A DNA stretch of 64,000 nt from Saccharibacillus brassicae. GTDB lineage: Bacteria; Bacillota; Bacilli; Paenibacillales; Paenibacillaceae. The stretch is taken from assembly GCF_006542275.1 (NCBI RefSeq), contig NZ_CP041217.1, forward strand, positions 1,535,501 through 1,599,500. Reading direction: 5' to 3'. The first letter of the stretch is position 1, and each line of letters starts with the position of its first letter. Below the pieces are notes generated by a model. It saw only the letters and a program-made list of their open reading frames with translations, was not told the DNA's origin and ran no database searches. A program made the translations under genes and the position numbers. Of this stretch, positions 33,784-59,607 are shown piece after piece.

Positions 33784-33812
33784 ATTATAACACGGAATCG
33801 GCCATACTGAAA
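33784..33812 (-). promoter_or_regulatory. Promoter of trxA
   Basis: Perfect minus-strand TATAAT (33784-33789), 17 bases from TTTCAG (33807-33812); the -35 is poor, so an activator or alternative arrangement is possible. Confidence 0.45.
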
Positions 33813-33895
33813 CAAATATTTGTAATAAATTATAAATATCTTACCTTTAGTAAGTGAAGATTGGATGAAGAAGGTTCGGTCTGCGTCGGTCGGGT

Positions 33896-34843
33896 TCAGC
33901 CGCGCTTGTTCTCGCCGAGGACGCGCACGACTTCCACGAACGGCGACACCCGGTTCATCAACCGCTCGCCTTTGTACGCTTCTTCTCCGTCCTTGTTCGT
34001 GAAACTGAGATGTTTCTCAAGCGCGGACAGCGAATAATTGGACGTGTAAAAAGTCGGTTTGCGGTTCATGCGGTGGTTGAGGATCGAACCGAGCACGTGA
34101 TCGCGTACCCACGGCCCCATGTTTTCCGCTCCGATGTCGTCGAAGATCAGCAGATCGGTTTCCTTCATCATCTCCACCGTATCGCGCAGTCTGTCTCCGT
34201 CCTGGATCATCGATTTGACGTCTTCGACGAAGTCGGGCATGTACACGATGACGCCGGAATGGCCTTCCTTCGCCAGCTCGTGCAGCAGATAGCACATGAG
34301 GAACGTCTTGCCCGTGCCGAACGGCCCTTCCAGATACAGCCCTTTGGTCGGCAGCCCGGCGGCCTTCGTCTCGTTGATATAGCGGAAGATGCGATTGACG
34401 GCCGGCGAACGCGCGGGGTCTTTGAGCATGATCTCCACTTCGTCGTAGCCTTCGATCAGAGCCCGTTCATCCACGTAAAAGCTGCGGATCCGGCTGCTGA
34501 TCAGCTTGTCCCGCTCATGGGCGAGCTGCAGATTGCACGGCGTCTTGTGGTCGCGAATCCGCAGCTGGCCGCCCACCTCGTCGACGCTGAGCTTCGTGTA
34601 GTGGCCCTGAAAATCGTTCGGGCACTTGTCGAGACCCGGACATTCGGCGCAGTGCCGCTTCTCCTTCATGTACTCGTACAGGCGGCTCATGTTGCGGATC
34701 AATTCCTGCTCGGTCAGTTCGGGATGCCGCAGCCGAAGCTGGCGCACGTCGGGCTCGTTCAATATTTTGGCTTTGAGGTCTTCGGTTCGCTGGTGAATGC
34801 GCGAACCTCCGAGCTGCTTGAGCACGTTGCCGATCGAGTCCAT
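33896..34843 (-). CDS. dnaI: Primosomal helicase loader DnaI
   Basis: 315-residue AAA+ ATPase that loads the replicative helicase at oriC and restart sites. The N-terminal region has a zinc-binding cluster (CAECPGLDKC, with further Cys/His nearby), followed by Walker A GPFGTGKTFLM and Walker B LLIFDDIGAENMGPW. The ATG at 34843 has GAGAGGAGGAC upstream. In Bacillus dnaB and dnaI are adjacent; here the order is the same but the genes are 547 bases apart, the gap being filled by a structured leader and a repeat array. Confidence 0.95.
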   Translation of the reverse strand: MDSIGNVLKQLGGSRIHQRTEDLKAKILNEPDVRQLRLRHPELTEQELIRNMSRLYEYMKEKRHCAECPGLDKCPNDFQGHYTKLSVDEVGGQLRIRDHKTPCNLQLAHERDKLISSRIRSFYVDERALIEGYDEVEIMLKDPARSPAVNRIFRYINETKAAGLPTKGLYLEGPFGTGKTFLMCYLLHELAKEGHSGVIVYMPDFVEDVKSMIQDGDRLRDTVEMMKETDLLIFDDIGAENMGPWVRDHVLGSILNHRMNRKPTFYTSNYSLSALEKHLSFTNKDGEEAYKGERLMNRVSPFVEVVRVLGENKRG

Positions 34844-34871
34844 GTTTGTCCTCCTCTCATGGTGGCGCTCC

Positions 34872-34964
34872 GCGATGTCGGGGATGGCTCCGGTTGTTTT
34901 CCCTCCTTCGAATCGAAGATTCTCGGGCCGGGGAAAGCCAAAAGTCGCCATCCCTCGACATCGC
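34872..34964. repeat. Large imperfect inverted repeat just upstream of dnaI
   Basis: GCGATGTCGGGGATGGC (34872-34888) pairs with GCCATCCCTCGACATCGC (34947-34964) with one extra base. Inside lie TTTTCCC/GGGGAAA (34897-34903, 34930-34936) and an apical GAATC-GAA-GATTC hairpin (34910-34922). The folded element would end about 28 bases before the dnaI start. Confidence 0.8.
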
Positions 34965-35041
34965 TCCGCTGGTAGGGGTGTAAAAGCATAAAAGATTAAA
35001 GGCGTAAAAGATTAAGGGCTCGAATGCGCCGGGCAGGGCCG

Positions 35042-35390
35042 GCTGTTCTCGCGGGTCGGGAAGGTGCCGGGCATTCGCCGGCTGTTCCCGACAGGGCGGG
35101 AAGGCGCCGGGCATATGCCGGCTGTTCCCGACAGGGCGGGAAGGTGCCAGGCATTCGCTGGCTGTTCCCGACAGGGCGGGAAGGCGCCGGGCATATGCCG
35201 GCTGTTCCCGACAGGGCGGGAAGGTGCCAGGCATTCGCTGGCTGTTCCCGACAGGGCGGGAAGGTGCCGGGCATTCGCCGGCTGTTCCCGACAGGGCGGG
35301 AAGGCGCCGGGCATTCGCCGGCTGTTTCCGACGGGCGGAGAAAGCGCCGGGCGGTGCCGGCTGTTCTCCGCGGGCAGGGGCAGCGCCGAT
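35042..35390. repeat. 40-bp tandem direct-repeat array with paired hairpins, between dnaB and dnaI
   Basis: Six contiguous 40-bp units (starts 35081, 35121, 35161, 35201, 35241, 35281) flanked by degenerate 39-bp units at 35042 and 35321 and a decaying partial unit from 35360. Each unit begins GCTGTTCCCGACAGGGCGGG and ends with GCC-R-GGCAT...GC-Y-G. Hairpin A is TTCCCG/CGGGAA; hairpin B is GCCGG/CCGGC or GCCAG/CTGGC. The R and Y positions always change together. Since 40 is not a multiple of three and all minus frames stay open, the array is unlikely to be protein coding. No spacers are present, so it is not a CRISPR. Confidence 0.95.
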
Positions 35391-36896
35391 TTAAGGTCGG
35401 GGCTTGATTTTATTGGCTTTCATCTCTTCGGCCATGCGCACGTATTCGGCGAATTCTTCGTCGCTGACGGCGGTCTGGACCGGAGAGTTCTGGACGATCG
35501 GAAGTTCGGGTTTGCCGCGGGCGGCTTTGCCCTGAACACGGGCGCGGCTGCCGCTTTGGGCAGGGGCCTGGCGTTTGGGATTGGCCTGGTCGCGGATATA
35601 ACGGACGGCTTTTTCGTACGTGTCGATCTGCCGCAGCAGCATATTCGAAGCGATCGAATCGACGAAGTTGCGGCTGATGCGCTGGTCGCCGTCTTTGCCG
35701 AGCAGCGTCACGAGGTAATGGATCAGCACGTTGATCACTTCGCCCGGCAGCTTGTAGCTGAGGTCGATCTTGCTGAACATGTCGAGCCACGGTCCCGGAA
35801 CGGTTCCGGGGAAAAAATTGCGCAGCAGGCCGGTATACGGCTCGTTGCGCAGCAGCATGTTGTACTGGTGAATATCGCATTTGGACTGGAACTGCGAAGG
35901 CACTTCCAGATAATATTCCATCTCCACGGCATGTTCGACCGGCATCTCTTCGGCGGCCGGTTCTTCCGGACGCACGGCGCGGGCGGCCCGGACCTGCCGT
36001 TCTTCGGTGCGCTTGGCGGTCTGGCGGAAGGTGAGATTGGCCCGGTTCTGGAGATTGTCGAGCATCAGCTCCCCGTCGCTTGAGAAAATGCCTTCCTCGT
36101 CCAGCAGCCGCACCACGTCTTCGACGTTCAGGTCGAACTTGCGGGCGACGTGATTGATCATGCCCATCTGTTCGCGGTTATGCCGCAGCGCTTCGACGAA
36201 CTTGCGGTTGCGGGCGCCGCGCGGAAAATGCAGGATCACGTCGGAGTAATCGAACAGCGGCTCTTCGGCCGGCATGTTCTTGCTCTGGCGGCGGGCCGGC
36301 GACGCTTCGGACAGCGCCTGTTCCAGCTCGTAGTCGATCACGTGCGTGTTCAGTTCGAAGATTTCGTAAAACGGCTGCGAAATGTTTTCTTTCGCCGCCC
36401 GCCCGACTTCGCCGAACTCTTCCGGCTCCCCCTGCCAGAAGCGTTCCTGCAGCGCCAATACGGCGAACTTGCCGATCTTGTCGCGCAGCAGCAGCGTCAG
36501 ATGCTGGGTCGCGAAAAAATCGGACGGCGGCAGCGGCTGCTGCAGCTCGTATTCGTACATGTATTGGTCCTGTTCCGGCAAATACAGCCGATGGGTCTGC
36601 AGCAGACCGACCGCTTCGAGCTTCGAAGCGTTCTCGACCATCAGCGTGCGCCCCCGGTCGTTTGGTTCGACGCCGAGCGTCAGAAACAGGTTGCGCTGCT
36701 GTTCGGGCTTGGAATATCCGGTCTGCTCGGCCGGCAGGTGCTGGGCGATCAGCCGGTACAGCGCGATAGCCGACGTGCCGACCATCGGCTGATAGACCAG
36801 GTTCAGCATGCGTTCGTCCCGGCTGCTGAGACTGAAATCGCGATACGTATAATAACGGTGATGTTCCGTATAGTGCAGCAGGCTCTTCATGCGCAT
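35391..36896 (-). CDS. dnaB: Replication initiation and membrane attachment protein DnaB (DnaD/DnaB family)
   Basis: 501-residue Firmicute DnaB, which with DnaD and DnaI remodels origin DNA and delivers the replicative helicase. The N-terminal winged-helix region (RDERMLNLVYQPMVGTSAIA) is followed by a central helical part. A DnaB2/DnaD C-terminal domain near residues 230-300 contains FVEALRHNREQMGMINHVAR-like sequence. A second one follows, with YLVTLLGKDGDQRISRNFVD. The ATG at 36896 (MRMKSLLHY) follows GAGGGGG. It lies upstream of dnaI on the same strand, presumably co-transcribed through the repeat array. nrdR, which often neighbours it, is not in the window. Confidence 0.9.
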   Translation of the reverse strand: MRMKSLLHYTEHHRYYTYRDFSLSSRDERMLNLVYQPMVGTSAIALYRLIAQHLPAEQTGYSKPEQQRNLFLTLGVEPNDRGRTLMVENASKLEAVGLLQTHRLYLPEQDQYMYEYELQQPLPPSDFFATQHLTLLLRDKIGKFAVLALQERFWQGEPEEFGEVGRAAKENISQPFYEIFELNTHVIDYELEQALSEASPARRQSKNMPAEEPLFDYSDVILHFPRGARNRKFVEALRHNREQMGMINHVARKFDLNVEDVVRLLDEEGIFSSDGELMLDNLQNRANLTFRQTAKRTEERQVRAARAVRPEEPAAEEMPVEHAVEMEYYLEVPSQFQSKCDIHQYNMLLRNEPYTGLLRNFFPGTVPGPWLDMFSKIDLSYKLPGEVINVLIHYLVTLLGKDGDQRISRNFVDSIASNMLLRQIDTYEKAVRYIRDQANPKRQAPAQSGSRARVQGKAARGKPELPIVQNSPVQTAVSDEEFAEYVRMAEEMKANKIKPRP

Positions 36897-37339
36897 CGGC
36901 GGATGTCCCCCTCTTGTCCTTGCAAATGGCGCGTAAAAATAGAGTTGCTCCGCGGAACGCGCCCTTGGTTGTGGACAGGTTCGTTGGAGCCCCTCTATTT
37001 TAACACAATTCCTGCGGCATGAAAGAGCGGAAAGGCACCAAAATTCCGGCAGGAGCAACCGTCCGCACGACCGGAAGCGTCCGCGCTTCGGAATGCTTGT
37101 TTTTTTGCGCATGACGGCTTCCCCGCAAAAACCCGGGCTTTTTCGCGCCGCGAATTGCTCTTGCGTTCGTCGGTGCGCTACAATGGAAATTGGGAGCCGC
37201 CGGAAAAAGCGCCTGGGCAGGCTGCGCGAAGCTTTACCGTTTTTTTGTAACCCGACGACCTTATGTTTATCCTACGGATTTTGACGGAAACTCTTGTGAA
37301 AATCCCCACCATACAATCTGATTTGGGAGTGATCGATTC
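36897..37339. other. Divergent intergenic region dnaB-hemQ
   Basis: About 440 bases. The dnaB side has a minus-strand TAAAAT near 37002 with only a weak -35. The hemQ promoter candidate is at 37155-37184. Nothing else gene-like is seen. Confidence 0.45.
37155..37184 (+). promoter_or_regulatory. Candidate hemQ promoter
   Basis: TTGCTC (37155-37160) and TACAAT (37179-37184), spacer 18, 156 bases upstream of hemQ. Confidence 0.4.
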
Positions 37340-38510: not shown

Positions 38511-38675
38511 TGCGGATACGGCGAGGGTTGGGTGCGGCGAAGTGCCGTGGCAGCGAGGTGCGGATACGACGAGTTTCAGGTACGGAGAAATGCCGTGGCG
38601 GCGAGGTCGGAATACGAAGCGGTTTACTTACAGCGAAGCGCCGTGACGGCGAGCTTCGGCTGCGTAGACTTCCCG
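38511..38675. repeat. Degenerate 48-bp tandem repeat, three copies and a remnant
   Basis: Units start at 38511, 38559, 38607 and (decayed) 38655. Shared blocks are TGCGGATACG at the start and GCCGTGGC-GCGAGG at the end. 48 is 16 codons, and three frames are open across it, each giving 16-residue repeats, for example RRSAVAAR. No ribosome site or known family supports a protein. This fills the rest of the hemQ-ndh gap, where I see no credible gene. Confidence 0.75.
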
Positions 38676-46400: not shown

Positions 46401-46407
46401 GTATACT

Positions 46408-46501
46408 CTCTTGATCTTATCTCTTGATCTTATCTCTTGATCTTATTTCTTGATCTTATCTTTTATCTTTTGTCTTTTGTCTTTTGTCTTTTATCTCTTA
46501 T
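46408..46501. repeat. Two nested microsatellites: 13-bp x4 then 7-bp x6
   Basis: CTCTTGATCTTAT at 46408, 46421 and 46434 and TTCTTGATCTTAT at 46447, followed directly by 7-bp units CTTTTAT, CTTTTGT (three times), CTTTTAT, CTCTTAT (46460-46501). The 7-mer resembles the CTCTT...CTTAT ends of the 13-mer, as if one arose from the other by slippage. Confidence 0.95.
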
Positions 46502-59337: not shown

Positions 59338-59534
59338 CAAAAAGCCCTTTTTGATAGACAAAAAGGGCTCGCATCGTATGCGGAAAGTCACCTTCTCATC
59401 TCCCAGAACCGTGGCTTGCGTTCTGTAGGAATTAGCACCATGACACCCTGCGCCGCACGTCTTCTTCGGACGTTCGCCTGCAGGATCGGTTGCCGGGCTT
59501 CATCGGGCCTGTCCCTCCGCCTCTCTCGATAAGA
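59338..59534 (-). ncRNA. SAM riboswitch (S-box) with terminator
   Basis: On the minus strand the aptamer runs 59534 to 59394. It opens TCTTATCGAGAGAGG and has CGGAGGGAC, the conserved GCCCGATGAAGCCCGGCAAC core, GGTGCTAATTCC and closing AGATGAGA. An intrinsic terminator follows: AGCCCTTTTTG (59343-59353) with CAAAAAGGGCT (59359-59369) and a T run. SAM binding is expected to stabilise termination and switch off metNPQ. Confidence 0.95.
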
Positions 59535-59607
59535 AAAATCTGAGATATCTAATTGGAAAGCTGGGGATTACGGAAATTCAAAAGAACCGAACCGAAATCC
59601 TTCACTC

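What the first reader, a model, noticed from the sequence alone, without database searches (positions are those of the whole stretch)
35042..35390. 40-bp hairpin array between dnaB and dnaI with compensatory base changes
Six contiguous 40-bp units plus degenerate flanking units fill the gap between two helicase-loading genes that are normally adjacent. Each unit can form hairpin A (TTCCCG/CGGGAA) and hairpin B (GCCRG/CYGGC). In hairpin B, units at 35121 and 35201 have A with T where the others have G with C, so pairing is kept in every unit. In the flanking unit at 35321, hairpin A changes C-G to T-A with pairing kept, and at 35042 a wobble is used. Alternating unit types give an 80-bp super-period at 35081-35240. 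Paired changes across units point to selection on RNA or DNA structure, not only copying. Possible roles: attenuation or stabilisation within the dnaB-dnaI transcript, or a protein or supercoiling-dependent DNA site. It is not a CRISPR (no spacers).
Basis: partly seen in the sequence, partly recalled or inferred. Interest (0 to 1): 0.78.

Follow-up and report, generated by a model that had tools for sequence, protein, structure and literature searches.

The report
Tandem hairpin family between operon genes
The array between two DNA-replication genes is nine tandem copies of a hairpin that belongs to a family of Saccharibacillus hairpins, whose stems change in matched pairs while an unpaired inner loop stays nearly fixed, so it looks like a maintained structure and not mere junk, though what it does is unproven.

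Summary
In detail: 35015-35366 is a 40-bp array (TRF 8.9 copies), read as nine hairpins on the dnaB-to-dnaI strand. The genome has the length reported for S. brassicae ATSA2T.

Hairpins A and B are better seen as one hairpin ("U"): outer stem, a 2x3 internal loop (mostly CA/GCY), inner stem. The orthologous spacer holds U with other stems in 6 of 10 Saccharibacillus species, in 1, 1, 1, 2, 7 and 9 copies, periods 40, 47 and 52 bp. The same architecture with other stems recurs at four more loci; the argG-argH array lay outside the model's training set. On 47 distinct units 94.0% of pair cells pair, against 64.9% shuffled and 26-48% slid, while the internal loop is nearly invariant. Between array and dnaI sits an interspersed hairpin element, D, with stronger covariation.

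Structure is therefore probably constrained; template switching may supply some paired changes. The role (intercistronic mRNA decay) is inference, and two of five loci are not in a clear sense orientation. REP membership fails: no GTRG foot (0 of 56), no Y1 transposase (0 of 10 genomes).

The parts
35391..37112 (-). dnaB (upstream gene)
   Evidence: Pfam DnaB_2 E 3.8e-5; NCBIfam DnaB models hit below their cut-offs
33896..34843 (-). dnaI (downstream gene), start codon at 34843, AGGAGG just upstream
   Evidence: DnaI_N and primosomal protein DnaI
35015..35366 (-). whole 40-bp array
   Evidence: TRF
35336..35370 (-). unit 1 (terminal, divergent: outer stem GGAGAA/TTCTCC)
   Evidence: R3 hit
35296..35331 (-). 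unit 2 (one A-C mismatch in the outer stem)
35256..35291 (-). unit 3
35216..35251 (-). unit 4 (GCCAG/CTGGC variant)
35176..35211 (-). unit 5 (CATATGC loop variant)
35136..35171 (-). unit 6 (same variant as unit 4)
35096..35131 (-). unit 7 (same variant as unit 5)
35056..35091 (-). unit 8
35018..35052 (-). unit 9 (terminal; form shared with other species, CGAGAA ... TTCGAG with tandem G.A/A.G)
34981..35020 (-). T-rich short repeats between array and D
34867..34970 (-). D element: long hairpin with variable outer stem and conserved GCGACTTTTGG / CCGGAGC core, 23 bases before the dnaI start codon
46524..46637 (+). second D copy in the window, 12 bases from the hprK stop codon
   Evidence: hprK named

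Best explanation
The array is a nine-fold tandem amplification, in S. brassicae, of one member of a Saccharibacillus family of two-tier hairpins (U): an outer stem closed by A-U, a 2x3 internal loop (YA/RCN in nearly all units), and an inner stem opened by G-C. Stem letters are nearly free as long as they pair; the internal loop is kept, which suggests that something reads the hairpin by its shape and loop. Copy number changes by slippage or unequal recombination, separately in each lineage. Shown by computation: the family, the covariation, the loop conservation, the differing copy numbers and periods. Inferred: the hairpins lie in the dnaB-dnaI messenger and, with the D hairpin just before the dnaI ribosome-binding site, act as barriers or cutting sites for ribonucleases, so that the dnaB and dnaI parts decay at different rates. 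The confidence below is for the whole.
For: Same hairpin at the orthologous spacer in 6 of 10 Saccharibacillus species, the fifth inner pair being G-C, A-U or C-G. Periods 40, 47, 52 bp with differing linkers. Four more loci with the same internal loop and other stems: between obg and an ACT-domain gene ('pheB', name recalled) in 9 of 10 species, both flanking genes confirmed; beside hemQ; argG-argH; solute-binding protein-permease. In the kuerlensis obg array three different inner stems pair. Pairing: 93.1% against 64.8% in shuffles for 29 typed units, 93.6% against 65.9% for 20, 94.0% against 64.9% for 47 distinct model hits. Loop columns: C 38, T 6, G 2, A 1; A 47; G 42, A 5; C 45, T 2; C 36, T 7, A 4, while terminal loops vary. 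R3: E <= 0.001 in 9 of 10 Saccharibacillus, no hit at E <= 1 in 6 of 6 other members of the same GTDB genus. No minus-strand terminator- or promoter-like site in the spacer. U is sense in three operon spacers: dnaB-dnaI, argG-argH, binding protein-permease. Hairpins between operon genes set decay differences in E. coli (PMC5927463, passages).
Against: No expression data. At obg the U and D hairpins run antisense to both neighbouring genes; beside hemQ U lies beyond the hemQ stop on the opposite strand, sense only to an oxidoreductase gene that I found in 2 of the 5 loci with U there. G-U (9) is not clearly commoner than C-A (5) among U pairs, or 7 against 3 in D, so nothing shows that the RNA strand matters. 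Three species with a 53-57-bp spacer lack the element, so it is dispensable. Selection bias: several U loci were first found with a scan that demands pairing; A4 and A6 are fitted to their models and hold training rows. In two of the three tests the counts of double-change pairs and of pair types are reached by some shuffles (29 and 111 of 2000; 36 and 33 of 500), in the third by 2 and 2 of 500. Hairpin arrays of unrelated sequence occur elsewhere in the genome, so amplification itself may be neutral.
Confidence: 0.5

Rival explanations
1. Neutral minisatellite. Short quasi-palindromes slip and duplicate during replication, and template switching copies one arm onto the other, which yields paired changes without selection.
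For: Template switching can create and repair hairpin stems in one event (PMC8794818, abstract and passages). In the brassicae core units the G.A/A.G mismatches of the other species have become perfect pairs, as such correction would give. Other hairpin arrays exist: 7 of 13 non-coding arrays in an 864-kb sample fold at z <= -1.4 against 0 of 9 coding ones (Fisher p 0.017).
Against: Template switching should also erase the internal loop and make perfect palindromes; the loop is nearly invariant over five loci. The z threshold was chosen after seeing the values; only 4 of the 7 have p < 0.05 on their own, and 1 of 7 arrays of the outgroup G027 also passes it.
Confidence: 0.3
2. REP-like DNA element: the folded single DNA strand is recognised by a transposase or other host protein through the loop mismatch, and has been spread and amplified at DNA level.
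For: Extragenic imperfect palindrome with a conserved internal mismatch (CA/GCY; E. coli REPs keep an AA-GC mismatch needed for activity, PMC8266576 passages), tandem arrays, several loci, one locus antisense to its neighbours and one on the strand opposite to hemQ.
Against: No GTRG in the 12 bases upstream plus the first 3 bases of 56 hits; no Y1 transposase (PF01797, E <= 0.001) in 10 of 10 Saccharibacillus genomes, with the control ringing in 5 of 14.
Confidence: 0.22
3. Transcription attenuator or terminator between dnaB and dnaI.
For: GC-rich hairpins in the putative transcript, T-rich stretch after the array.
Against: No minus-strand match to the terminator pattern in 33800-37300; the 6 sites found are on the + strand and near the shuffle mean of 4.7.
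Confidence: 0.05

Closest known systems
REP / BIME (repetitive extragenic palindromes)
   Same: extragenic, imperfect palindrome with a conserved internal mismatch, tandem arrays, between operon genes
   Different: no GTRG foot, no Y1 transposase found, each locus has its own stem sequence, few copies per genome (10 U units at E <= 1e-4 in S. brassicae, 9 of them here)
BrickBuilt MITE-borne minisatellite of Porphyromonas gingivalis (PMC4596501, abstract and outline seen)
   Same: tandem repeat inside a small interspersed intergenic element with extra flanking parts
   Different: 23-nt unit of one sequence; here unit sequence differs at every locus and the hairpin architecture is what is shared
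Template-switch (quasi-palindrome) mutation products (PMC8794818, abstract and passages)
   Same: paired stem changes, perfecting of stems in the brassicae core units
   Different: does not account for the kept internal loop
Intercistronic stem-loops that steer differential mRNA decay, as in the maltose and papBA operons (PMC5927463, passages)
   Same: position between co-directional genes at three of five loci, stable hairpins
   Different: multi-copy arrays of a covarying family; effect on decay not measured

Membership tests
REP / BIME | GTAG-type tetranucleotide at the foot of the hairpin | tested here: not met
   0 of 56 U hits with GTRG in the 12 bases upstream plus the first 3
REP / BIME | Y1 (TnpA-REP / IS200-IS605) transposase in the genome | tested here: not met
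   PF01797: 0 of 10 Saccharibacillus genomes; control positive in 5 of 14
REP / BIME | extragenic imperfect palindrome with conserved internal mismatch | tested here: met
REP / BIME | single-strand binding and cleavage by the cognate protein | not testable with these tools
   biochemistry
Rfam structured RNA | match to a curated covariance model | tested here: not met
   gathering search of the window gives only a SAM riboswitch elsewhere; relaxed search of 34700-35500 gives three hits far below their gathering scores
CRISPR | repeats separated by unique spacers | tested here: not met
   contiguous 40-bp units
Intrinsic terminator | hairpin followed by a T run on the transcribed strand | tested here: not met
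   0 minus-strand sites in 33800-37300
MITE | terminal inverted repeats with target-site duplication | not tested
   species with a 53-57-bp spacer look like an empty site, but no duplication analysis was made
Template-switch product without selection | mismatches and internal loops are erased over time | tested here: inconclusive
   internal loop columns nearly invariant in 47 distinct units, but G.A/A.G pairs were perfected in the brassicae core units; no dating of the copies

The most novel reading that the evidence does not exclude
U and D are two members of an undescribed class of structure-addressed extragenic elements of Saccharibacillus: the host reads only the internal loop and the fact of pairing, so stems are free to diverge from locus to locus; U is amplified again and again into arrays in spacers, and D is kept beside rRNA, tRNA and SRP RNA genes and dnaI as a processing hairpin. 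They do the work of REP/BIME elements without a Y1 transposase.
Probability: 0.35. Interest if true: 0.8.

Novelty: new variant of a known kind. Interest (0 to 1): 0.62.

Why it matters
Paired stem changes are usually taken as proof of a selected RNA. Here ten natural arrays of two or more units, at five loci in six species, let one separate selection from template-switch mutation, because a kept internal loop and a free terminal loop sit in the same 35-nt unit. If the hairpins steer decay of dnaB-dnaI, argG-argH or transporter messages, copy number would be a dial that lineages have turned independently.

Tried and rejected
Tried without result: Rfam at gathering and relaxed thresholds. Literature: searches; of the listed papers I opened five (PMC8794818, PMC9867790, PMC8266576, PMC4596501, PMC5927463) in part, and saw only titles and abstract starts of the rest; none of what I saw describes U or D. 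A first descriptor script missed even the known units because of a logic error; corrected. Considered and rejected: CRISPR; type III antitoxin array (neighbours are dnaB and dnaI); coding repeat (period 40 is not a multiple of 3, so no repeated reading frame). U-model hits outside Saccharibacillus: 4 of the 148 family genomes at E <= 0.01; I looked at two (L351, L352), which lie inside genes, and take them as chance; the other two were not looked at. A hit at G007:C15 (E 0.004) was read only as sequence and looks coding. One more strong U hit, G010:C4:223-260 (E 2e-7, not in the training set), is a single unit near a contig end; its genes were not worked out. D-model hits outside Saccharibacillus: 4 of 118 family genomes, E 2e-4 to 9e-4; one abuts a 23S rRNA gene, a hint that D is older than the genus, no proof. 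The G-U against C-A test was indecisive. Gene names ndh, pheB: recalled; searches support only 'pyridine nucleotide-disulphide oxidoreductase' and 'ACT domain protein'.

Full report
OBSERVATION. TRF gives 35015-35366, period 40, 8.9 copies; the core pattern is found six times here and nowhere else in the genome. The genome is 5,619,468 bases in one contig, the length reported for the chromosome of Saccharibacillus brassicae ATSA2T (PMC9867790, passage). dnaB and dnaI run on the minus strand with 547 bp between them; family models agree with the names, DnaB weakly.

COMPARISON OF THE SPACER. From 80 dnaI loci I extracted the dnaB-dnaI spacers where dnaB was in reach. Among 71 non-Saccharibacillus loci 5 have more than 125 bp. 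S. sacchari, endophyticus and JS10 have 53-57 bp; six species (with ours) have a related hairpin and a seventh (O23) has only the second element. Copies: brassicae 9, kuerlensis 7, CPCC 101409 2, alkalitolerans 1, qingshengii 1, deserti 1. Periods are 40, 52 and 47 bp in the three arrays and the linkers look unrelated, which I read as separate amplification.

THE UNIT. On the dnaB-to-dnaI strand the unit is one two-tier hairpin: outer stem, internal loop CA on the left and GCY (or ACC, GCA) on the right, inner stem. In the units of the other species the outer stem holds a G.A/A.G tandem mismatch (in kuerlensis if one extra loop base is allowed); in the brassicae core units it is replaced by two G-C pairs, while terminal unit 9 keeps the other form. 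The A/T for G/C exchange within the array is one event copied by the 80-bp duplication.

THE FAMILY. A scan for outer stem >= 5, CA, inner stem >= 4 and GC on the right found the same architecture with other stems beside hemQ, in a 67-bp array of CPCC 101409, and upstream of a D element between obg and an ACT-domain gene; in the 864-kb sample of our genome it gave 17 hits, 3 in the array and 14 elsewhere, which I take as background. Reading six obg loci from five species: 7 units in kuerlensis with three different inner stems that pair, 3 in qingshengii, 2 in deserti, 1 in brassicae, 1 in sacchari; alkalitolerans has 2 and JS10, endophyticus and CPCC 1 each. tblastn confirms obg and the ACT-domain gene on either side in the other eight species' loci. 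A covariance model from 20 units (R3) run on 16 genomes of the GTDB genus gives E <= 0.001 in 9 of 10 Saccharibacillus (not O23) and nothing at E <= 1 in 6 others. It also found two places outside its training set: seven units of 47-48 bp between argG and argH in kuerlensis and a single unit near a contig end of CPCC. The CPCC 67-bp array lies between a solute-binding-protein gene and a permease gene. Beside hemQ there are 2 units in CPCC, 1 each in qingshengii, sacchari, endophyticus and kuerlensis; U lies there beyond the hemQ stop on the other strand, and the oxidoreductase gene on the far side was found in 2 of these 5 loci. Ten locus-species pairs carry two or more units, at five loci, in six species.

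STATISTICS. 29 typed units: 93.1% of cells pair, mean of 2000 shuffles 64.8%, maximum 72.1%; pair types and double-change pairs are reached by 111 and 29 of 2000. By locus the pairing exceeds all 1000 shuffles for dnaI and obg; for hemQ 26 of 1000 reach it. 20 units of A5: 93.6% against 65.9%, slides 23-44%. 47 distinct model hits: 94.0% against 64.9%, slides 26-48%, 134 cells with both sides changed against 39; double-change pairs and pair types are reached by 36 and 33 of 500. Caveats: rows are related, A6 is fitted to the model and includes its training rows, and part of the loci were found with a scan that demands pairing. The loop columns read C38/T6/G2/A1, A47, then G42/A5, C45/T2, C36/T7/A4, with the flanking A-U and G-C pairs invariant, whereas the terminal loop varies in letters and length. 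The model favours these letters; against that, the units of the arrays were recovered as wholes, except the degenerate fourth unit of the CPCC 67-bp array.

THE D ELEMENT. Between array and dnaI lies a second hairpin (34867-34970). A model from ten examples finds 5-22 matches at E <= 1 in each of 10 Saccharibacillus genomes and none in the 6 others of the GTDB genus (150 candidates scored per genome). On 33 distinct rows 98.5% of cells pair against 69.2% shuffled and 27-41% slid, 14 of 16 pairs with double changes (fitted alignment with training rows). D stands in sense just before 5S rRNA or tRNA genes (L239, L240, L247, L301), before the SRP RNA gene in five species (L242, L244, L246, L248, L250) and before dnaI in seven. 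In one search, 8 of the 17 D copies listed end within 24 bases of, or overlap, the stop codon of a gene on the other strand. U lies upstream of D on the same strand at dnaB-dnaI and at obg. D has no Rfam match.

GENOME BACKGROUND. In 864 kb of our genome TRF (period 25-200, at least 2.5 copies, score at least 100) gives 22 arrays, 13 non-coding by a simple codon model; several have hairpin units of other sequence (L175 58 bp x 7, L186 51 bp x 5.2). None passed in 140 kb each of S. sacchari and of G004; seven passed in 120 kb of G027. Doubled consensus units fold at z <= -1.4 in 7 of 13 non-coding and 0 of 9 coding arrays of our genome and in 1 of 7 of G027, a threshold set after the fact. The finding's own consensus is not exceptional by that measure (z -0.57).

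MECHANISM. Paired changes can come from selection or from template switching (PMC8794818). The perfected outer stem of the brassicae core units fits the latter. The kept internal loop does not: copying one arm onto the other would remove it. I therefore hold that the structure is probably constrained. For the role: the spacer has no minus-strand terminator or promoter match, U is sense in three operon spacers, and D ends next to the dnaI ribosome-binding site; differential decay of the two halves of the message is the simplest use. Against it, U and D are antisense at obg, U is not clearly sense beside hemQ, and the G-U to C-A ratio shows no RNA-strand bias, so a DNA-level reader remains possible; but the REP route fails two tests.

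VERDICT. I found no description of U or D in literature searches, which cover open-licence papers only.

Noticed in passing
window 46407-46496 and 34981-35020: T-rich short tandem repeats (TCTTATC / TTAATCTTTTA type) just upstream of both D copies in the window; similar stretches precede D at some other loci.
   Followed up: partly
window 38511-38653: 48-bp repeats between hemQ and the oxidoreductase gene, a place where other Saccharibacillus species carry one or two U hairpins.
   Followed up: partly
L175 8244-8646, L186 11507-11772, L182 7839-7992: Tandem arrays with hairpin units of unrelated sequence in the same genome; the L175 array also seems to show paired changes in its arms (by eye).
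   Followed up: partly
L033 and L036, dnaB-dnaI spacer: The 3' arm of D is itself repeated in tandem (33 bp x 2.9 in alkalitolerans, 42 bp x 2 in O23).
   Followed up: no
L248 1306-1413 (-): A weaker D-like match on the opposite strand beside the D that precedes the SRP RNA gene in O23.
   Followed up: no
L071, L074, L085 dnaB-dnaI spacer: Three Paenibacillus loci (P. farraposensis, P. maysiensis, P. brasilensis) hold another insert of about 260-300 bp at the same place, different in sequence from U and D by eye.
   Followed up: no
window 59393-59535 (-): SAM riboswitch, the only Rfam match in the window at gathering threshold.
   Followed up: no
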